Shown: one piece after another, positions 22,938 to 39,410 of the stretch
How the letters are laid out: each line of letters begins with the position of its first letter
Numbering within the stretch: position 1 is the stretch's first letter
Origin: Kalmanozyma brasiliensis GHG001
Lineage: Eukaryota; Basidiomycota; Ustilaginomycetes; Ustilaginales
Direction of reading: 5' to 3'
Length of the DNA: 64,000 nucleotides
Assembly (NCBI RefSeq): GCF_000497045.1
Contig: NW_015961970.1
Span: forward strand, 1,951,706 to 2,015,705
The notes under the pieces: model-generated
Told to the model about the DNA's origin: nothing
Seen by the model: the letters and a program-made list of their open reading frames with translations, nothing else
Databases searched by the model: none
Position numbers and translations under genes: made by a program

Positions 22938-23311
22938 CAGCAGCAAACATGCACCAAACGGCCATAGTCAAGCTCACCCATTTCGTCGTCCAGACGCCTT
23001 TTGTATTTGTATCATTGTAACTCTACGCTCATCCATGAATGTTTGAAGGTACTTGCTCTGTATTGCTCTGTGCTGAAAGAGTCCGTGAGTGAGTGTGAGT
23101 GCGAGCCTGACCATATCCGCCAGGTGTGAGTGCTTCAGGGTCCTGCGAGAATTTCGGGATCCGGACCCTATTGGTGGTGGAGGAGAACTGAGCCTTGTCT
23201 TGCGATACTTCCAGATCCCACTTCATTCCCACACACCGCATAACAACAGCACAAACGGGCCCAGCGTCTCAGAGACCGCTCCCGCTGGATTCGCATCGAC
23301 GCTCGCTCAGG
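22938..23311. other. Short intergenic region between TAF1 and GCFC-type gene
   Basis: These 374 bp between tandem + strand genes must hold the TAF1 3' end and the next promoter. GAGTGAGTGTGAGTGCGAG near 23090 is a small degenerate repeat. I see no RNA gene. Confidence 0.5.
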
Positions 23312-26062
23312 ATGAGCGGTGGCATCGGCGGCTTTGTCAAGAGGAGCAAGCCGAGAAGCTCAGCTTCGAGGCTCAGCTCGACCTACGACGATGAAGAAGA
23401 TGTCGAGGCTGTGCCGTCAAGCGTCTCCATCAAGTCGGTTACGGCAAAGGACAGTGGCATTGTATCGAGCTCGAGAGCACCCCGTCGGGCCGTTAAAGGG
23501 CTCGACAACGAAGACGAGGAAGACATCCCCAGGTCAAATGTCGTCTTCCGGTCCCGAGCAAAAGGGGCGAGGGGAACGCCATCCTCTTCCTCCGTGGCAG
23601 CCAGCAGCAGAACGGGGTTAAACTCAACATTGGCGTCAAAGCAGCGTCCTGCGGTCAGTGTCATGGTCGAAGATGATCTTGGAGATGAAGGCGATGCCTT
23701 TGAAGTCCGTCGCTCGAAACTCAACACGACAGGTAAACCGGCTAGAAGATCTGCAGCCGACACCTCATCCTCGACAGAGGCCCCAGGACGGTCGACACCG
23801 CTTCGTCCAACGACCTTCCAGTCGATTCCAACACAGACATCTGAAGTCCCTTCCAGCGCCTCGTCCGGCCTGTATACCTCCAGATACCTTGAAGAGCTAC
23901 GTTCATCAACACCTACCTCGCGTTCAAGGGCACACAGTCCTACCCCGGAACAGCCTCTTGGACCAGGCACACGCATCGACGATCCCATGGTGGCGCAGAC
24001 CTCTCGCATGGCGCTTGAAGACCACGGTGACGGCGACCTCGCTCGAAGCAAGTTCGCCGCTGACTTCGCACACGACGCCATTCCCAGCGAAAGCGTCATC
24101 CGCGCAGCCAAGGAGAAGCGCGCCAAGCTCCGCGCCGCCGCCGCGAACACCACCTCCTCTTCGGAAGACTTCATCTCCCTAGCGCCGTTCTCCAAGTCCT
24201 CCGCACTGAAGAAGTACGATGCGATGGAGATCGACGACGGGCCGCATCCGCACTCCAGACTGCAGCGGGAGGAAGACGAGCTGGGCGATGGCGAAGACGA
24301 TTTTGCCGAGTTCACCGGCGCCACCGACCGCATACCTCTCGGCGAGAAGGCGGAGAAGGAATGGATTGACCGACAGAGGCGGGAGATGGACGCTGCTGTG
24401 CGCGGTGATTTTGATGAAGATGCCGTGGTGGAAGACGAGATGGATGAAGACGAAGAGGAGTGGGAACGGGCGCAGTTGCGACGTACGCAGAACGTGACAC
24501 AGACTTCGCAGTCGAGAGAGGCTTCGCCCTTTCGATCGGCGCCAATACCTGCAGCGGTGCCGTTGCCGTCCGTTGGATCGTGCTCTACGCGGCTGGAGCT
24601 CACGGTTCGTGCGCTGGATCAGAGTACGGCTGCCAACGCGGCTGTGGTAGAATCGTCGACGAAGGAGTTGGAGACGATAGAGGCAGGTGAGGCGGAGAAT
24701 AAGGTGAAAGTTGCACAGGTCGAGGACAAGGCCAGCTGGTTCAACGAGCTCGATGAATTTGTGGGCAGCTTGGCGCGGTTCATGGAGGAGAAGATCGGGA
24801 GGCTCGAGGAGGTGGAGAAGCAAGCATTGGATTTGCTATTCAAACAGAACAGTATGCACTCGAAGCGGATGGGCAGGTGGCTCGATGCAAAGCTGGAAGC
24901 GTCTCTTCAGATCAGGCTTGCGAAGAGCGCGGTGCTCAATCTCGCCGAGGAGGAAGATGACGAGATCGTACCAGGTACCGAGGAGTATGGTCTGCTGGCA
25001 CCAACCGAAGCGCCACAACTGGACCGTCTGGACCCCGCCGACGAGCTCTCCTTCACCCTCGCCCAGCGCGAAATCGCCTCAACCCGCCGATCCATCTTCG
25101 CCGACGTGCAAGCAGTCGAATATGTCGACCCGGGAGCCCTCACCGGCCTGGCACCTTACGCCTTCGGCCACCTCTACCCAGAGCGCACTTCGCCGAAACC
25201 GACAGACTACGATCCGCATCCACGCAGCGTCGTTGCGCGCTTCGAATCGTGGCGTTCCCTCTATCCCGAGGAGTACGCGCAGGTGTGGGGCGGTCTCTCC
25301 CTGGCACAGATCTGGCAGTTCTATGCGCGACACGAGATGTGTCTCTGGGTACCCTTTTCTCAGCCAACACCTTCCGGAGAGGGGATGCCTTGGTATGAGG
25401 GCGCAATATGTCTACCGGAGATGGAGTGGTATAAGGGGGCATTTGGGTATGTGAAACGGGCCCACGCTGATGCACAGGCAACGGTGGGGGGCGACGACGA
25501 GGTGCTTACGACTATTATCGCTAATGTGCTCGTGGGACATTTGATTACATTGGCGAATAGGGGGGCCTTTTCGCCCTGGTTCGCAGAGCATACGCGCGAG
25601 GCGGTGGAGTCGGTCGATTGGGTGGTGAGGGCGCTGTTGGGTGCTGAGCATGTTCGGTACGTCAGCTTGGTCGAGGCGTTCTTAGACGTTTTTGGGGCTC
25701 AGATTGGGAGATTGAAGGAGGTGATGGAGACCGGGATGCATATGAAGGGTGGAGAGGAAGGAGCGAGGGCAGCGGCAGAGGTGGTGGATGCCCTGGTGCA
25801 GCGGTTGCTCAAGAACTTGGTCGCCTGGTCGAAACCAGTGGGGCTCAACGATGGCGCTGCGAGCGGGCAGTCGACGGTGCTCGTCAAGACAGTTGTGGGT
25901 CTCGTCGAGACGTTGGTATTCGACGTTCTTGAGCCCTTCCTTGCGGTAACGGGCCAAAGGGAGGTCACATTGCAAGCTCGAAGGCAGATCTTCGACGTGC
26001 TTCCATCGGAGATCGTCGCCAGGTCCGAGAGGCTCACGTTGCTTTCACAGTCTCTGAATTGA
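23312..26062 (+). CDS. GCFC/NTR2-family splicing factor (PAXBP1/GCFC2-like)
   Basis: Family members take part in late splicing and spliceosome disassembly; animal relatives are GCFC2 and PAXBP1. The product has 916 residues. The frame reaches further upstream only through a TTG at 23195, so I start at the ATG at 23312 (MSGGIGGFVKRSKPRSS). The N-terminal half is disordered and acidic. Near residue 290 is the NTR2-type motif IPSESVIRAAKEKRAKLRA, followed by FISL. The middle is coiled-coil-like (ASWFNELDEFVGSLARFMEE). The C-terminal GCFC domain begins with RFESWRSLYPEEYAQVWGGL, then CLWVPF. This combination points to a nuclear splicing role. The exact orthologue (NTR2 versus PAXBP1 type) is not settled. 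It converges with UTP25, 109 bp away. Confidence 0.85.
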   Translation: MSGGIGGFVKRSKPRSSASRLSSTYDDEEDVEAVPSSVSIKSVTAKDSGIVSSSRAPRRAVKGLDNEDEEDIPRSNVVFRSRAKGARGTPSSSSVAASSRTGLNSTLASKQRPAVSVMVEDDLGDEGDAFEVRRSKLNTTGKPARRSAADTSSSTEAPGRSTPLRPTTFQSIPTQTSEVPSSASSGLYTSRYLEELRSSTPTSRSRAHSPTPEQPLGPGTRIDDPMVAQTSRMALEDHGDGDLARSKFAADFAHDAIPSESVIRAAKEKRAKLRAAAANTTSSSEDFISLAPFSKSSALKKYDAMEIDDGPHPHSRLQREEDELGDGEDDFAEFTGATDRIPLGEKAEKEWIDRQRREMDAAVRGDFDEDAVVEDEMDEDEEEWERAQLRRTQNVTQTSQSREASPFRSAPIPAAVPLPSVGSCSTRLELTVRALDQSTAANAAVVESSTKELETIEAGEAENKVKVAQVEDKASWFNELDEFVGSLARFMEEKIGRLEEVEKQALDLLFKQNSMHSKRMGRWLDAKLEASLQIRLAKSAVLNLAEEEDDEIVPGTEEYGLLAPTEAPQLDRLDPADELSFTLAQREIASTRRSIFADVQAVEYVDPGALTGLAPYAFGHLYPERTSPKPTDYDPHPRSVVARFESWRSLYPEEYAQVWGGLSLAQIWQFYARHEMCLWVPFSQPTPSGEGMPWYEGAICLPEMEWYKGAFGYVKRAHADAQATVGGDDEVLTTIIANVLVGHLITLANRGAFSPWFAEHTREAVESVDWVVRALLGAEHVRYVSLVEAFLDVFGAQIGRLKEVMETGMHMKGGEEGARAAAEVVDALVQRLLKNLVAWSKPVGLNDGAASGQSTVLVKTVVGLVETLVFDVLEPFLAVTGQREVTLQARRQIFDVLPSEIVARSERLTLLSQSLN

Positions 26063-31452: not shown

Positions 31453-31787
31453 GGTTGCTAACGCCTGTGAGGGTGCTGATTCGCTAGCGACAGATGTGGT
31501 CGATGATGATGACGAAGAAGATCAAGGTATACAACTTTTCTTCTCAACCTCAAAAAAGTCCACTCCGGGTCCGCCTAATTTTTCGACCCCTTTCCGTCTG
31601 TTGTCAATGAACTCTAACATCTGTCTAGAATCCGTCGGATGCGGAGAAGAAGGTTATTGGCCGACGTGGCGCCCGTTCCACCACGGCCTCCCTCCCTCAT
31701 CGCAGGAAGATCTCGACGCACCCCCTTCCCTTCGTCACCCACCACATCAACAACGATACCATCACAGGTGGTCAGGACGCTGCAATC
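31453..31787. promoter_or_regulatory. Divergent promoter shared by mL49 and Sec61 gamma
   Basis: A 335-bp gap between two small housekeeping genes. A short frame crosses it on the + strand but is out of frame with Sec61 gamma and has no similarity. No TATA box is clear. Confidence 0.45.
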
Positions 31788-32568
31788 ATGTCGGACACGA
31801 TCAAGGAATTCGTCGATATCCCGCAGAACTTCTTCCGCGAAGGGACGCACTTTGTCAACCGATGCACCAAGCCTAACCGCAAAGGTGAGCAACCACCAAC
31901 CCCGGCTTCGCCTCCCTTCTCTACGCAGGGAGGGGAAAGGCATGGGCAGTCGAGGATGAAGAGAGATGCGAGCGGGACCTGTGCTGACTTCCTCAAGTTC
32001 TCGCTGGGTCGACAACAGAATACATTCAGATCTGCAGAGCGGTAGGCCTCGGATTCGTCGTCATGGGGTTCATTGGGTACTTTGTCAAGCTCGTACGTAC
32101 ACACCTTGATTCTCACATGGCAGCATTCCCATCGCATTCGTACGGCCCGACCAGTTGGAATGCTTCGAACGGCAACCGAGTCGAACGAAGGCTTGTCGCA
32201 GCCGTGTCGAGAGAATGACAAGCATGGAGTGGGAGGAAGTTGCTAACACGCCCACCTTGATCTTGACTCGCTGTTGGCACAGATTCACATTCCAATCCAC
32301 TCGATCGTACGTTGTGCATCCTCTACCGAACAGACGACATGGTCGACCATGTCGCTGCGCCGAACTGCCCTGCTGACTTTGTCCCTCCTCGCCTTCTCGT
32401 CTATCCCTACGACTTGCGATTCTGTCGTCCTTGCAGCTTGTGTAAGTCTCCTCGTCCCGTGCAGTTCCCTGTGTAGACGAAGGAGGGATCGACCGCTGAC
32501 CGAACTGCTGTCTCGTTCCCTCTCGTGCATGTCACCTTTGCTTCTCGAACAACAGCGGCGGAGCCTAA
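31788..32568 (+). CDS. SSS1: Protein translocon subunit Sec61 gamma (SSS1), five exons with a 5-nt micro-exon
   Basis: This is the single-span gamma subunit of the ER protein-conducting channel. It is visible only when spliced: exons 31788..31884, 32019..32092, 32283..32306, 32437..32441 and 32556..32568 give 70 residues. The product reads MSDTIKEFVDIPQNFF..., NRCTKPNRKE, YIQICRAVGLGFVVMGFIGY, VKLIHIPIHSILVGGA. Family landmarks are the KEFVD amphipathic start, NRCTKP, and the tail span GFVVMGFIGYFVKLIHIP. All introns are GT-AG (134, 190, 130 and 114 nt). The fourth exon is only CTTGT; it supplies Leu plus two bases of Val and restores the ILVGGA ending seen in other fungal Sec61 gamma proteins. 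Without it, the frame reads on through to 32609. Confidence 0.88.
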
Positions 32569-33287
32569 AGCACACACACTCGCACGCACCGACCAAGTTA
32601 CCAGGGTAGTGCTTGACAATACGATCCTTCTTCAGCAGCATCTCCCCTCGTATGTGGTTTCTACGAGCGTGTTACTAGCCGCGTGGTTCTCGCTAGCGTG
32701 CATATCAACGCGGTGCAAGTTTGATGTCGACGGAAAAGCTCGAGTGAGAGAGTGTATATGAGTGCTGGGCAGGACACGCCGGGGACACAATACAAGGTCG
32801 ACTCAGGGGGGGTGTGGATAAGAGCGTCTGCGATGCATCGCGATAGCGCAGCATACCGAGCTTGAGCCTGGCGTGCCGCATGTGTCGGCCCTGCTCGCCA
32901 ACGAGCCGTAGTCGAAGGTGCACATCGACATGCTGAGACCTTGTGAGTGGACACACGACCAAAGCCCGAACGCGCACGTCCACATCCTGGACCAACCCAT
33001 CCCCACCACCTCCTCCCCCCACACTCACACCCTCCATCAACCTCACAATTGAACCTTCACACAACTTAGACACTGAATCACGCACGAATCACGCACGAAC
33101 ATGAGAGCAGAACGACCGGCCCTTTTCGAGAACCGATCATAGTATTTTTTGGGTGTGTGTGATGTGTGCAAGCGTCACCGTTAGAAACGACAACGAGAAT
33201 GACTAGTGTAACATGCTATCCCATCTCACCTTTTCAGGCGCAGAATGGGAACAGCGAAATCGAGGATGCAAAGAAGAGGAGAGACGC
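32569..33287. other. Convergent 3' region between Sec61 gamma and uL29
   Basis: These 719 bp lie between convergent genes. They should carry both 3' UTRs. I see AC- and TC-rich stretches near 33000-33050 and an AT-poor run of Gs near 32806, but no gene. Confidence 0.5.
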
Positions 33288-34785
33288 TTATGCCTTGAGA
33301 ACGTACTTGCGGTTGGCAAAGTGGATCTCGCGCTTGTGCTGACGCTCGGTGATGCGGGTGCGCTCGTGCTGTTGCGATGGTGAAGGAGAGTGAGGGAAAG
33401 AGGGTCAGCATTATGTTGAGATGACAGGAAGTGTTGCAATAGAAGAGCGGTGTGCGGAGGTCTGAGATGCGGGGCGTTGGGTGATGCCAAGATGGTAGAC
33501 CTGCTTATCGACAATGGTGGGGAGTGTGTCCATGGGTTGTCTTGCAGCACAGCGTCATCGGTGCGTCCGGCAACAGCGTCCATCTCCGTGATCAGATCAA
33601 GTCTGTGGCCATGGCTTCGGCACTGGAGCTGTCCGGATGCAATGACCAATATCGACCACAACCGTTTGTACCGCTCTGCATGCGATGAGCCTGACCCAAT
33701 CGATGGCGCCTCCTGCTCCGCACCTCCTCGATAGCACCGCTCTTCTTGTCGACTCGAAACATACCTGGTTGAGCTTGCGCCTGATGGCGCGGGTCTTCTT
33801 GGCGCGCAGGTCCAGGGGGATCTGGGACTTGCCCTTGTAGAACTCGCGCAGGTTGGCGCGCTGCTTCTGGTTCATCACGGTGAGAACACGGGCAATGTCC
33901 TTGCGCAGCGAGTTGATGCGCAGGATCTTGCTCGACGAACCACCAGCCACCTTCTGCACGCGAAGGTTGAGCAGCTCCGTCTTGAGCTCCTCCAGCTGCT
34001 TGGTCAGGTCCGTCTTGGACTTTGATTGCAGTTCGAATGTCTTGACAACCTGTTGGGTGGAATGCAAATGGCGGGGTGTGAGTATGTTGTTGAACGAGGA
34101 TGGTGGTGATGATAGCGATGGCAAGAGGCTGCAGCAGCATGGCACGTCGAGGAGGCGGATGTAGATTCGACGACAATCGGTTGCGGGACAAGGCTGAGAG
34201 TCACAACGGACGATGACCGCAAGATTGCGCAGATGATGGTGTGATGGCCGTCGATGGCACTTGCTCCTTCTCCTGAAAGTGTGCATGGCATGCTAGGGCA
34301 AAGACCAGTGCCTTGTCTATGACATCAACCTCGGGAGGGGTTGCTTGGTGCCGGTGATGACTGCAATCTGCGGTGGCCGTGCATCACGAGACATCACTGT
34401 TGTTGATTATGTCTCTGCGCTGGCAATCGATGGTCGATGTCGTCGAAAGCAACACGCTGCGTGCAGGTCAACACATCCAGCGTCCGAGAGCATGACCATG
34501 GGTTCCGTCCTGAGACTGCTTGTACGGAGTGTCGTGGTGCTGCTGTGTGCGTGTCGGTGCATCATAATTCCTTCTTAGACGGCAACATGCTCTATCTCGC
34601 AGTGACCTAGTACCATGATCATTGATCGTCCAAGTCCGCATAGCGTCGATAAGTCACATCCTCCTGAACAACCCTGACCGTCTGCTGAACCATGCTTTGC
34701 ATGTCGAACCTGCATCAAGTCGGTCGAACGCTGTGCCATGCTGTGCTATCTCTGTCGTATCTGCTGAATGTCGAACACCTACCAT
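33288..34785 (-). CDS. RPL35: 60S ribosomal protein L35 (uL29), three exons with an ATG-only first coding exon
   Basis: uL29 lies near the peptide exit tunnel of the 60S subunit and contacts SRP and nascent-chain factors. Exon 2 (34049..33765) encodes [20 protein letters not shown] through AIRRKLNQ. Exon 3 (33368..33288) encodes [20 protein letters not shown] and ends YVLKA. The only good start is an ATG at 34785..34783 followed immediately by the donor GTAGGT, so coding exon 1 is just the start codon. The 733-nt first intron ends in CAACAG at 34050; the second is 396 nt. The total of 122 residues matches eukaryotic uL29 (about 120-123). The VVKTFEL start, against VKTFEL in many relatives, depends on that acceptor. 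I looked for snoRNA boxes in both introns and found none convincing. Confidence 0.88.
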
Positions 34786-35498: not shown

Positions 35499-38400
35499 TC
35501 AGATGGCGACGGAGAGATCGCTGGTCTTGTATCCGATCCGGCCCATGTTGCTGCTGGCGAAGCTTTGGACGCTGCTCGACTCGGGCATGTCGCCTACTTC
35601 GCTGCCCCTCGAGCCCATCATCCCCCTCATGCCCATCGACTTGCCCATCCCTGCCTGGGCGAAAGTCGACTTGACGGGGCTCGGGAAGTGGCCCATGCGC
35701 GAGAAAGAGCCCAGGCTGGACGACATGGATCCGAGCGAACTTGAGCTATCCGAGTGAGTGAGAGACGGCTCGGCGTGTGCGACACGGCGCGATTCGAGCG
35801 CAGCACTGTTCGCGCCGACCACGGGCAAAATGCCACCGGCGCGGTAGGTGGTGGAGCGGGAACTGCGACCTTCGTCGTTGTAGCGCGAGGAGCGGTCGCC
35901 TCCCATGTGTGCAGGCACAGGGCTTCGGAGGGCGGGTGAGAACGCTCGATCGTTGCGCTTCATCGGGCTTCCATCTCCATTGAGGCTGGCGGCGAGACTC
36001 AAGGGTCGAAGCTTGAGCGACGATGGCGAAACCTCACCGCCATAGGGTGAGAGGTGGGCAGCGGCGGCCGTATCGATGGGGGCGAGGTTGCGTGCTGCCC
36101 CGCGCATCGGTCGCAGTCGCAACGGAATCGATGTCGTCGAGCCCATGGACGATGCCGAACTCGTGCTCTCCGACGGCGCGTGTCGCGACTGGTACATCGC
36201 CGTCCCATCGATGGGCGTCAGAGGCGGCGTCAACGGCCCCACCACCCGCTGCTGCGGCGGCGCGAGTATCAAATCGTTCACCTTCTTTCGCCCGTACGCC
36301 CGCTTCGGACTGTCATCCAACTCCTCCCTCTCCTCTTCCTCCTCCACCTCTTCTTCGCTCTCAAACAAGCCCAGACCCATCGTAGAGCTCTCCTCGGGGA
36401 TGTTACGGAGTGATGACGTTTTGGGCATCTGCGACAGACGGTATCGCTCCGCAGCCTGACTGTCCCGTTTGGCATCCTTGGCTTGCGCCTTGGCCACGTT
36501 CTGCTGGACACTGGCCAGCAGCTTGGCCCGACGGTCGGCTGCGAGGTCGAGATCGTCCCCCATCGAGTCGGACATGCACGTGCTGTTGCTCATCATGCTG
36601 ATGGTCGAGGCGGCGACGCTGATGACCGAGTCGCGGTAGTGCAGGTGCTCATCTTCGTCGTCGGCGCGGGCTCCGGCGGAGGACGTGGAGGGAGGTCGTG
36701 GAGTGACGTCGCCGTCGTTGGGGCTGGTGGGTGGCAGATCTTGGTGTAGCATGGCCGGGGCGGAGGGGACGCTGTGGACATCGGGCGACGAGGCGACGCC
36801 AAACTCGATGCGCTCAGTAGAGGAGCTGAGCGAAGCCTCACCGATCGGGATGAGCGGCGAGTAGAGCGATTCGGATGGCGTAGCTGCGCGGTCATTTGCC
36901 GGCGACGTGGCCCATTGACCGGCGTGCAGCATGGGCGATGGCGACGCGGCAGAGTAGACCGACTGAGGCGAGCCACCGAGAAGACCACCTGCGGGAGCCG
37001 CCTTCTTGAATCGAAGCGGTTTGGTGGGTTCAATCTCCTGACCGTTGAATAGGATCGCAGGGCTGCTGATCCCCAGTCCAACCTCGTCCGGTTGCGGAGA
37101 CAGAAGAGGAGTGGTGCCAGGTCGCGCAGAGGACTTTTCCGGCCTGCTCGCCGTCATCTTGGGTGTCGCATCCGTAGTGGCAGCGCCATCGACGTCCTCG
37201 CCCGTTGCGAGGAGCGGGAAGGTAGCACTAATGGGACTGGGAAGGGGGCTGAAGTTGGGCGTGCTGTTCTTCGATGCGAGACCAGGCGAGCTGCTGAACG
37301 ACTTGCGGGGCAGGCTCAACCTCGCCTTGAGAGTGTCCGTGAAGCCAGGCTTGGGGCTCATCGAAGGCGAAGTGCTACGCAACTTTGGGCTGAGCTGGGC
37401 AAAGATGGGGCTGTCCGCGCCGAGACCAGGCGAGAGATGTCCGCCATCCGCAGGAGGATCCGGGATGAGAGCACGGTGGTATGAGCTCATGAAGTTCATG
37501 GTGGCACCTTTGCTCGTGCTTGCGAGAGGGAGGTGGTCGCTGGACTTGGCCTTGAGGTTCGTCAGGCCGAGACAGTTGACTTCGACCGACTCGACGTTGA
37601 TGCTCGGGCTCGGCATCTTGGCGGCCATGCTAGGCGATGGCGGCATGGGTGCAGCTCGCGGGTGCATCAGGTCGGGCATGACAAGCTTGGGTCGGTCGAG
37701 TGCCCCGAGCGTAGAAGCTCTCTTGCGCATCGGTCGAACCGGAACTGCACCAGCCTTGGGAGCGTCAGACTGACCCTCAAAGACAGTCGGGAAGCTAGCC
37801 TGAGGCGCCTTGTCCTCCGCAACCCTCAGCATAGAAACGGGCATAGGCGGAAGAGGAGGAATCGAAGCAGCTGGCACAATGTTGGCCTTGCCGATGCTCG
37901 AGTTTGCCTCAAGGTCGACGCTCGTCTGCGAAGAGCTGTACGACATGGCATCGCTGGAGTAGGATCGCGTCGTCATCGAGTCTGCCACGGTGGAATTGCC
38001 TGCTTCGAGGTCAATCTCTGAGCTCTTGGAAGGCCTTCGCAAGCCATTGATGATCTTGGTGAACGTGCCTTGCGATGGGCTCTTGGTAGGTCCCAGGCCG
38101 AGACTGAGCGGGCGGTAGGAGGATTCGAGGACCTCCTGCTCCTCTTCGTCGTATGGCAGGCAGGGAGACGGTGCAGAGTCGAAGGCCGCCATGTCGACGA
38201 AGATCTGACCAATCGAGCCCGTGGCGCTGTGGAACGTCTCTTTCGCGGACGACGCATTGCTTGCTGCTGTCGCGCGGCTCGCCTTGCTTTGCAAAGAGGC
38301 GTTGGAGGGCATCTTGTGCATGGGCGCGCTGGTCGGCGCAGGAGGCAGGCTCTGCGAAGGTGGCGGCGTTGGCAGATGCGATCGGACCGAAGCGGGCGAT

Positions 38401-39410
38401 GGCAATGTGCTCAATTGCGATGCAGGACTGGCCTTCAAGCCTGGAAGTGTGGCAGTCTCTGGCTGAGCAGGCGAAAGCGCTTCGATGAGGCTCTGCATGC
38501 CAGCGCTCACCTTTGTCGACTGCGCTGGCTGTGTTGCTACTGCCGAGGTGGGAAGATCGAAAGAAAAGTCGCTTCGAAGCTGAAGAGCCTGCTCGAATGA
38601 TTCGTCGTTGCCAAAGTCGATGCCGAGGTCGAGGATGGGTGTGAGGGACGGCTCGTCCGCGACATCTTGCGACTTGGCACCTTCCAGACCCCTGTTATCT
38701 TCCGACAACAGGGCTGGCTTGGACGCGCTCGTGGGCAAAACACCGAGGCTGCGAAGCAGCATGGAAGGAACTGCACTTCGGGTGAGCTTCTTCTTCTGTT
38801 CTGTCGCTTCCTTTTGGTCGTTCACCAGGGTGTCTTTAGAGGGAGAGGGTGATGGTACTCTTGGCGACTTGCCATACGCCATTGGCTTGAGCAAGATGCT
38901 GGGACCGGGCGACATGGTGAGCTCGGTGAGGCCGGGCGACTTGGGCGTCCACGGCGATCGCGGCGGCGGCAAGTCGGCATAGACGGGGGGCTGCATCCGG
39001 GGCGACAGCAGTGCCGGGTTGGGGAACTTTGGCGATACGAACGTCTTCATGGGGAAGAAGTTGTGCTGTCGCACTGACACGAGTGTCCTCTGCGAGAGCG
39101 ACATCTTGGTCAAGTCATGGCGCGCGTCGTGAGCGCGATCTGGCGCGAAGTTGAGATGCGGCTCGCTGATCTCGTCTGTGGATATTGACTTTGCTTTGAT
39201 GTGCTGTGCGTAGATGGCTGCGGCGGAAACGGGGCGTGACGAGGTGGTACTGAGGAGAGATCTGCGTTTGCGAGCGCGAAGGTATCGTCGAAGCGCCACG
39301 GCGACAAAGATGAGCGCGGCAAGCACAGCTGTGCACGCGGCGGCGAGGAGGGAGGTCGACAGCGTCGAGAGGCCGCTGTGACCGCCCGCAGCAGCGCCTG
39401 TGCTCGACAT
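35499..39410 (-). CDS. Single-span membrane protein with long Ser/Pro-rich cytoplasmic tail, unknown function
   Basis: This intron-free gene encodes 1,303 residues from ATG 39410. After about 18 Ser/Gly/Ala-rich residues there is one hydrophobic span (about 19-41, LLAAACTAVLAALIFVAVAL). It is followed at once by a basic stop-transfer patch (RRYLRARKRR), predicting an N-out, C-in type III topology with no cleaved signal. The remaining 1,250 residues are Ser/Pro/Ala-rich and low complexity, with many SP dipeptides (potential proline-directed kinase sites) and repeated short phrases such as SPGL, SPAS and PSPS. An acidic run (EEEVEEEEEREE) lies near residue 1040. The layout resembles fungal plasma-membrane sensor or scaffold proteins such as Wsc or Mid2 tails, but no extracellular domain is present. 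I recognise no family. Confidence 0.82.
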   Translation of the reverse strand: MSSTGAAAGGHSGLSTLSTSLLAAACTAVLAALIFVAVALRRYLRARKRRSLLSTTSSRPVSAAAIYAQHIKAKSISTDEISEPHLNFAPDRAHDARHDLTKMSLSQRTLVSVRQHNFFPMKTFVSPKFPNPALLSPRMQPPVYADLPPPRSPWTPKSPGLTELTMSPGPSILLKPMAYGKSPRVPSPSPSKDTLVNDQKEATEQKKKLTRSAVPSMLLRSLGVLPTSASKPALLSEDNRGLEGAKSQDVADEPSLTPILDLGIDFGNDESFEQALQLRSDFSFDLPTSAVATQPAQSTKVSAGMQSLIEALSPAQPETATLPGLKASPASQLSTLPSPASVRSHLPTPPPSQSLPPAPTSAPMHKMPSNASLQSKASRATAASNASSAKETFHSATGSIGQIFVDMAAFDSAPSPCLPYDEEEQEVLESSYRPLSLGLGPTKSPSQGTFTKIINGLRRPSKSSEIDLEAGNSTVADSMTTRSYSSDAMSYSSSQTSVDLEANSSIGKANIVPAASIPPLPPMPVSMLRVAEDKAPQASFPTVFEGQSDAPKAGAVPVRPMRKRASTLGALDRPKLVMPDLMHPRAAPMPPSPSMAAKMPSPSINVESVEVNCLGLTNLKAKSSDHLPLASTSKGATMNFMSSYHRALIPDPPADGGHLSPGLGADSPIFAQLSPKLRSTSPSMSPKPGFTDTLKARLSLPRKSFSSSPGLASKNSTPNFSPLPSPISATFPLLATGEDVDGAATTDATPKMTASRPEKSSARPGTTPLLSPQPDEVGLGISSPAILFNGQEIEPTKPLRFKKAAPAGGLLGGSPQSVYSAASPSPMLHAGQWATSPANDRAATPSESLYSPLIPIGEASLSSSTERIEFGVASSPDVHSVPSAPAMLHQDLPPTSPNDGDVTPRPPSTSSAGARADDEDEHLHYRDSVISVAASTISMMSNSTCMSDSMGDDLDLAADRRAKLLASVQQNVAKAQAKDAKRDSQAAERYRLSQMPKTSSLRNIPEESSTMGLGLFESEEEVEEEEEREELDDSPKRAYGRKKVNDLILAPPQQRVVGPLTPPLTPIDGTAMYQSRHAPSESTSSASSMGSTTSIPLRLRPMRGAARNLAPIDTAAAAHLSPYGGEVSPSSLKLRPLSLAASLNGDGSPMKRNDRAFSPALRSPVPAHMGGDRSSRYNDEGRSSRSTTYRAGGILPVVGANSAALESRRVAHAEPSLTHSDSSSSLGSMSSSLGSFSRMGHFPSPVKSTFAQAGMGKSMGMRGMMGSRGSEVGDMPESSSVQSFASSNMGRIGYKTSDLSVAI

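What the first reader, a model, noticed from the sequence alone, without database searches (positions are those of the whole stretch)
32437..32441. Five-nucleotide micro-exon in the Sec61 gamma gene
The Sec61 gamma frame ends correctly only if a CTTGT exon flanked by TTGCAG and GTAAGT is included: exon 3 ends in phase 0 (HIPIHSI), CTTGT adds Leu and two bases of Val, and the last exon CGGCGGAGCCTAA completes VGGA-stop. The resulting ILVGGA ending agrees with other fungal Sec61 gamma proteins as I know them. Exons this short are below the length most gene finders and exon-definition models accept, so splicing of this essential gene would rely on intron definition.
Basis: partly seen in the sequence, partly recalled or inferred. 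Interest (0 to 1): 0.75.

Follow-up and report, generated by a model that had tools for sequence, protein, structure and literature searches.

The report
Five-nucleotide exon in Sec61 gamma gene
In a smut-type fungus an essential membrane-channel gene appears to contain an exon only five letters long; tiny exons are already known in fungi, but this one seems to be shared by related fungi whose public gene models often go wrong at the same spot.

Summary
The micro-exon is very probably real. The gene at 31788-32568 (+) encodes a 70-aa Sec61 gamma (Pfam SecE) from exons of 97, 74, 24, 5 and 13 nt; the four introns are GT-AG with a CTRAC branch site. CTTGT (32437-32441) supplies the ILVGGA end shared with most relatives read. 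The 5-nt exon and the VGGA-stop acceptor each arose in 1 of 20,000 shuffles under strict criteria.

That leaves the downstream AG|CGGCGGAGCCTAA unexplained, so I rank it as a minor form.

Relatives support conservation through protein models only. Of 23 named Ustilaginomycotina clusters among the 201 read, 11 end VG[GA]A, 11 break right after the same Ile, 1 right after LV. One unspliced ORF (P0143) is compatible with 20-nt intron, CTTGT, 22-nt intron. No relatives' DNA and no RNA could be reached.

Exons of 1-6 nt are in print, in fungi too. New member of a known kind; its interest lies in the apparent conservation and recurrent mis-annotation.

The parts
31788..31884 (+). Sec61 gamma exon 1 (97 nt, ends in phase 1)
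31885..32018 (+). intron 1 (134 nt, GTGAGC...ACAACAG, branch CTGAC at 31984)
32019..32092 (+). exon 2 (74 nt)
32093..32282 (+). intron 2 (190 nt, GTACGT...GGCACAG, branch CTAAC at 32243)
32283..32306 (+). exon 3 (24 nt, IHIPIHSI, ends in phase 0)
32307..32436 (+). intron 3 (130 nt, GTACGT...CTTGCAG, branch CTGAC at 32373)
32437..32441 (+). exon 4, the 5-nt micro-exon CTTGT (Leu and two bases of Val)
   Evidence: shuffle control
32442..32555 (+). intron 4 (114 nt, GTAAGT...ACAACAG, branch CTGAC at 32496); its first bases read as a stop in frame if it is kept (GTG TAA)
32556..32568 (+). coding part of exon 5 (13 nt, CGGCGGAGCCTAA, end of Val, Gly-Gly-Ala-stop)
   Evidence: shuffle control

Best explanation
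CTTGT is a normally included 5-nt exon of the Sec61 gamma gene (ortholog of yeast SSS1) of an unnamed fungus of the Ustilago group. Introns 3 and 4 each carry a donor, branch site and acceptor of their own. They are most likely removed one after the other by intron definition: once either is out, the five bases belong to a longer exon and the steric problem is gone. Skipping the exon breaks the frame. Keeping intron 4 ends the protein at once, because GT|GTAAGT reads GTG TAA, so that error product (ILV) lacks only three residues of the normal one (ILVGGA). SHOWN: sequence, phases, splice and branch motifs, product of each splicing choice, homology, rarity in shuffles. INFERRED: use of the exon in RNA, order of splicing, intron definition, presence of the exon in the DNA of relatives.
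For: Exact frame and ILVGGA end. GT-AG borders and CTRAC branch sites in all four introns. Shuffle controls: strict 5-nt exon 1 of 20,000, VGGA-stop acceptor 1 of 20,000. Closest clusters end HSILVGGA; 172 of 201 relatives have the usual tail. Gene models of Malassezia, Tilletia and Ceraceosorus break exactly at the same Ile (11 named clusters), and one Malassezia model breaks after LV. P0143 can be decoded as intron-CTTGT-intron.
Against: No RNA was available. The ILV-stop reading is also a possible functional end. CTRAC branch sites in introns 3 and 4 are weak evidence alone: 1,533 and 947 of 5,000 shuffles have one in range. Evidence from relatives is from protein models, not DNA: scans for their DNA found nothing. 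The human MPC1 4-bp exon shows that a tiny exon can use exon-definition elements instead (PMC9929638, passages).
Confidence: 0.8

Rival explanations
1. CTTGTGTAA is the start of the last exon: the protein ends ILV-stop as in yeast Sss1, and there is no intron 4.
For: The acceptor at 32436 followed by CTT GTG TAA gives a complete 67-aa protein with a SecE score of 56.7 against 56.5 for the longer form. The Sss1 chain 2ww9_B aligns to its last residue (80 of 80) at query position 67. Two database models, Papiliotrema laurentii and Vanrija albida, end NNILV.
Against: It leaves unexplained a GTAAGT donor, a CTGAC branch site and an AG|CGGCGGAGCCTAA that completes VGGA-stop (1 of 20,000 shuffles). 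The closest relatives end VGGA.
Confidence: 0.06
2. The micro-exon is real and intron 4 is kept in a substantial, perhaps regulated, share of transcripts, giving two C-termini (ILVGGA and ILV).
For: The stop falls inside the donor. Most of the U. maydis alternative splicing events that could be classified were intron retention (PMC2219887, passages).
Against: Intron 4 has a GTAAGT donor, a CTGAC branch site and an ACAACAG acceptor, whereas retained U. maydis introns are reported to have more degenerate sites (PMC2219887, passages). No expression data.
Confidence: 0.15
3. The exon is real, but it is recognised through exon-definition elements in its flanking introns and not by intron definition.
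For: Reported for the constitutive 4-bp exon of human MPC1 (PMC9929638, passages).
Against: Introns 3 and 4 are short (130 and 114 nt), and fungi are thought to use intron definition (PMC2219887, passages). The MPC1 exon has long flanking introns.
Confidence: 0.12
4. The whole stretch 32307-32555 is removed as one intron or as a twin intron (stwintron), and CTTGT is never in the mRNA.
For: Stwintrons exist in ascomycete fungi (PMC12403724 and PMC8469720, search listing only).
Against: The product is frame-shifted and ends IRRSLKHTHSHAPTKLPG, a tail that none of the 201 relatives has.
Confidence: 0.02

Closest known systems
Fusarium CYP621A one-nucleotide exon (PMC12940212; passages seen)
   Same: Fungal internal exon of a few bases, not a multiple of three, needed for the frame, found by comparing protein ends and phases; there confirmed by RNA reads
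   Different: 1 nt against 5 nt; a P450 gene of an ascomycete; here no RNA evidence
Cryptococcus neoformans exons 'as small as 1 bp' (PMC3990503; passages seen)
   Same: Basidiomycete, very small exons hard to annotate automatically
   Different: An RNA-seq-based remark on a whole genome; no Sec61 gamma case in the passages seen
Arabidopsis APC11 one-nucleotide exon (PMC4674806; passages seen)
   Same: Constitutive, frame-critical; [quoted passage not shown]
   Different: Plant, 1 nt, proven with reporter constructs
Plant micro-exons of 1-15 nt (PMC8831610; passages seen)
   Same: Conserved, in coding regions, widely mis-annotated; includes a 5-nt rice exon validated by RT-PCR sequencing
   Different: Plants; found from RNA-seq over many species
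Human MPC1 4-bp exon (PMC9929638; passages seen)
   Same: Constitutive, not a multiple of three
   Different: Long flanking introns; included through exon-definition elements
Phanerochaete P450 micro-exons, shortest 6 bp (PMC1184071; passages seen)
   Same: Basidiomycete gene models with very short exons
   Different: P450 genes, longer exons

Membership tests
Internal coding micro-exon | A very short internal stretch with an acceptor before it and a donor after it | tested here: met
   TTGCAG|CTTGT|GTAAGT with branch sites in both flanking introns
Internal coding micro-exon | Inclusion keeps the conserved protein, skipping breaks it | tested here: met
   Included: ILVGGA-stop; skipped: IRRSLKHTHSHAPTKLPG
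Internal coding micro-exon | Presence in mature mRNA | not testable with these tools
   No RNA or cDNA of this organism at hand; no intronless copy in the genome with up to 3 mismatches
Internal coding micro-exon | Conserved in relatives at DNA level | tested here: inconclusive
   Protein models break at the two predicted junctions; P0143 compatible; no relative's DNA found
Sec61 gamma / SecE | SecE domain | tested here: met
   PF00584, 56.5 bits, cut-off 22.7
Sec61 gamma / SecE | Full-length match to solved Sec61 gamma chains | tested here: met
   9i78_3, query 1-70 to chain 1-70
Stwintron (twin intron) | Both introns removed without leaving exon sequence, frame kept | tested here: not met
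   Removal without CTTGT gives a frame-shifted tail
Recursive-splicing ratchet site (zero-length exon) | Acceptor directly followed by donor with no bases kept | tested here: not met
   Five bases lie between them and are needed for the frame; a sequential mechanism of that sort remains possible

The most novel reading that the evidence does not exclude
The 5-nt exon is ancestral to the whole subphylum Ustilaginomycotina and has been kept since its classes split. It shares its downstream phase-2 intron with Agaricomycotina, where the same spot holds a 15-nt exon instead. The GT|GTAAGT junction works as a safeguard or switch that turns intron retention into an almost normal, Sss1-like protein.
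Probability: 0.2. Interest if true: 0.6.

Novelty: new member of a known kind. Interest (0 to 1): 0.4.

Why it matters
If RNA confirms it, this is a natural test of how a fungal spliceosome handles an exon too short for factors to sit on both of its splice sites at once, in a gene that is essential in yeast (recalled). It also marks one predictable place where public gene models go wrong: 12 of the 23 named Ustilaginomycotina clusters read here have a broken or suspect C-terminus. A 5-nt exon kept through a subphylum that includes intron-poor fungi such as U. maydis would bear on why some introns resist loss.

Tried and rejected
Looked for DNA of relatives with Sec61 gamma (P0001) and with a 14-row alignment (A1) in viral contigs and genome contigs: pattern matches, but no relative confirmed. 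Scans of metagenome contigs were capped at zero, so none was made.

Looked for an intronless copy of the spliced 3' end in the own genome with up to 3 mismatches: none. A protein search of the genome gave two matches, both at the window gene (exon 1; exon 2 with adjoining read-through).

Looked for other 5-nt exons in the genome with CTGAC-N20-50-TTGCAG-N5-GTAAGT: zero. The pattern was ill chosen, since the gap here is 53 nt and it misses even this site, so it says little. GCAGCTNGTGTAAGT gave one match, this site, against two matches of the reversed control pattern.

Tried to name the species from the 1303-aa ORF at 35499-39410 (-).

Considered a single intron joining ATCGT to CGGCGG (IVGGA): it needs an AC donor and is one residue short. 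Rejected by inspection.

Full report
What is there. The window is part of a 17.27-Mb, 26-contig genome. At 31788-32568 on the + strand lies a Sec61 gamma gene with exons of 97, 74, 24, 5 and 13 nt and introns of 134, 190, 130 and 114 nt. The joined coding sequence of 213 nt gives a 70-aa protein ending HIPIHSILVGGA. It matches Pfam SecE at 56.5 bits (cut-off 22.7) and aligns over 1-70 to the Sec61 gamma chain 9i78_3, which also ends ILVGGA. The closest clusters, named Mycosarcoma maydis and Ustilago tritici, are 97% identical and end HSILVGGA. The protein search of the own genome matched only this gene.

Is the 5-nt exon more than chance? All four introns are GT-AG with a CTRAC branch site; from branch A to intron end is 31, 36, 60 and 56 nt. 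A CTRAC with its A 15-65 nt from the end turns up in 607, 577, 1,533 and 947 of 5,000 shuffles of the four introns, so for introns 3 and 4 the branch sites are weak evidence alone. The strong evidence is the coding fit. A 5-nt exon coding hydrophobic-Val between YAG and GTRAGY arose in 1 of 20,000 shuffles of the 249-nt stretch, in 6 with a looser donor, and a 5-nt exon of any content in 336. An AG followed by VGGA-stop arose in 1 of 20,000 shuffles of the next 359 nt, and a looser V[GA][GA]x-stop in 246. Of 22 AG sites 40-359 nt after the donor, only the one before 32556 gives GGA-stop.

CTTGTGTAAGT read on without splicing is CTT GTG TAA, so a transcript that keeps intron 4 still ends cleanly, as ILV (67 aa). 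The Sss1 chain 2ww9_B aligns to its last residue at that position (that this chain is from yeast is recalled), and SecE scores do not tell the two forms apart (56.5 and 56.7 bits). So the frame alone does not force the micro-exon plus last exon. What argues for it is the otherwise unexplained donor, branch site and AG|CGGCGGAGCCTAA, together with the relatives.

Relatives. The two Sec61 gamma searches matched 186 and 913 clusters; the best 120 of each were listed, and the 201 distinct ones listed were read. By tail: 172 are of the usual kind (three of these end ILVS), 17 break right after the Ile of NNI or its equivalent, 6 break right after LV, 5 read HIPM, and 1 lacks NNILV. The 17 comprise 11 named clusters, Tilletia (3), Ceraceosorus (1) and Malassezia (7, two of them M. 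pachydermatis), and 6 unnamed ones. One species each of Malassezia, Ceraceosorus and Tilletia was checked to lie in Ustilaginomycotina; the other genera were assigned from recall. Counted this way, 23 named clusters are Ustilaginomycotina: 11 full, 11 broken after Ile, 1 (Malassezia arunalokei, P0097) broken after LV. Fourteen of the 17 tails begin with V, and 13 of those continue with S, R, C or G, which is how GTNNG can read in frame; the other three (two Tilletia, one M. pachydermatis) begin with R or T. LV followed by YV or YG (P0097, P0111, P0127, P0189) is how GT|GTAYG can read, and NNILV at the end of a model (P0135, P0172) is how GT|GTRAG would read. These readings are inferences from protein letters, and the Malassezia entries are not independent of each other.

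One unspliced ORF, P0143 (source ena, unnamed, Malassezia-like), runs NNI-VRMRLTSLCMLLLLTS-GGA. Its letters are compatible with exactly one layout of the tested kind (introns of at least 18 nt): a 20-nt intron, a 5-nt exon that can be CTTGT, and a 22-nt intron. Of 5,000 shuffled tails, 16 fit any NTNGT exon and 7 fit CTTGT; of 5,000 random tails with fixed ends, 16 and 2. This is compatibility, not a DNA sequence read. Outside Ustilaginomycotina, the five HIPM models and the HIPI-GGA model of Cryptotrichosporon (P0081) suggest a 15-nt exon between an upstream phase-2 intron and the same downstream intron; that too is inferred from proteins only.

How it most likely works. Both flanking introns look complete and are of ordinary size: EST-supported U. 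maydis introns average 169.8 nt, and fungi are thought to use intron definition (PMC2219887, passages seen). With only five bases, factors on the acceptor and on the donor could hardly sit side by side, so removal of one intron at a time is likely; the order is unknown. [quoted passage not shown] For C. elegans microexons a model of intron definition helped by PRP-40 is proposed (PMC8378409, passages seen). A counter-example is the human 4-bp MPC1 exon, reported to rely on exon-definition elements (PMC9929638, passages seen). Which applies here was not tested. Skipping gives a frame-shifted tail, whereas keeping intron 4 costs three residues. That SSS1 is essential in yeast is recalled.

Compared with what is known. 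Very small exons are in print: 1 nt in Fusarium (PMC12940212, passages), 'as small as 1 bp' in Cryptococcus neoformans (PMC3990503, passages), 6 bp in Phanerochaete P450 genes (PMC1184071, passages), a functional microexon in Trichoderma (PMC11121469, passages), and many in plants, including a validated 5-nt rice exon (PMC8831610, passages). The Fusarium paper calls its case the first for a fungal gene, although the Cryptococcus paper already mentions 1-bp exons.

I found no paper in the held library on a Sec61 gamma micro-exon. Sec61 + microexon + fung gave 0 papers. In the 20 papers listed of 122 for any two of Sec61 gamma, SSS1, microexon and micro-exon, the first two terms had no occurrence; the other 102 were not seen. 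Malassezia + microexon gave 1 paper and Ustilago maydis + microexon gave 5. Of those five, three were read in passages (P450 genes; read-alignment settings, twice) and two were seen only in the listing. Five phrases for a 5-nt exon gave 12 papers, none fungal by its title. Only openly licensed papers are held.

Verdict. What lifts it above a single oddity is the likely conservation and the mis-annotation of the same junctions in relatives, which one look at their DNA or RNA would settle.

Noticed in passing
P0016, P0018, P0032, P0040, P0085, P0096, P0097, P0121-P0125: Public Sec61 gamma gene models of Tilletia, Ceraceosorus and Malassezia have broken C-termini exactly at the junctions of the predicted 5-nt exon.
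   Followed up: partly
P0081, P0087, P0105, P0117, P0120, P0164, P0189: Models from Agaricomycotina suggest a 15-nt exon at the same place, bounded by a phase-2 intron upstream and the same phase-2 intron downstream (inferred from protein letters).
   Followed up: partly
P0143, P0154, P0162, P0180, P0181: Unspliced Malassezia-like ORFs read in frame through a first intron of only about 21-30 nt, which suggests very short introns in that lineage (lengths inferred from protein letters).
   Followed up: no
31629-31787: The Sec61 gamma reading frame stays open for 53 codons upstream of the ATG at 31788, with no in-frame stop. Whether this is 5' UTR, part of the upstream gene or an N-terminal extension was not settled; the closest relatives start at the same Met.
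   Followed up: no
33201-34300 (- strand): A ribosomal protein gene (Pfam Ribosomal_L29, so probably L35, named from recall) converges on the Sec61 gamma gene from the other strand.
   Followed up: no
23195-26062: A nearby ORF matches NTR2 (Nineteen complex-related protein 2), a splicing-related family; its nearness to this gene is probably chance.
   Followed up: no
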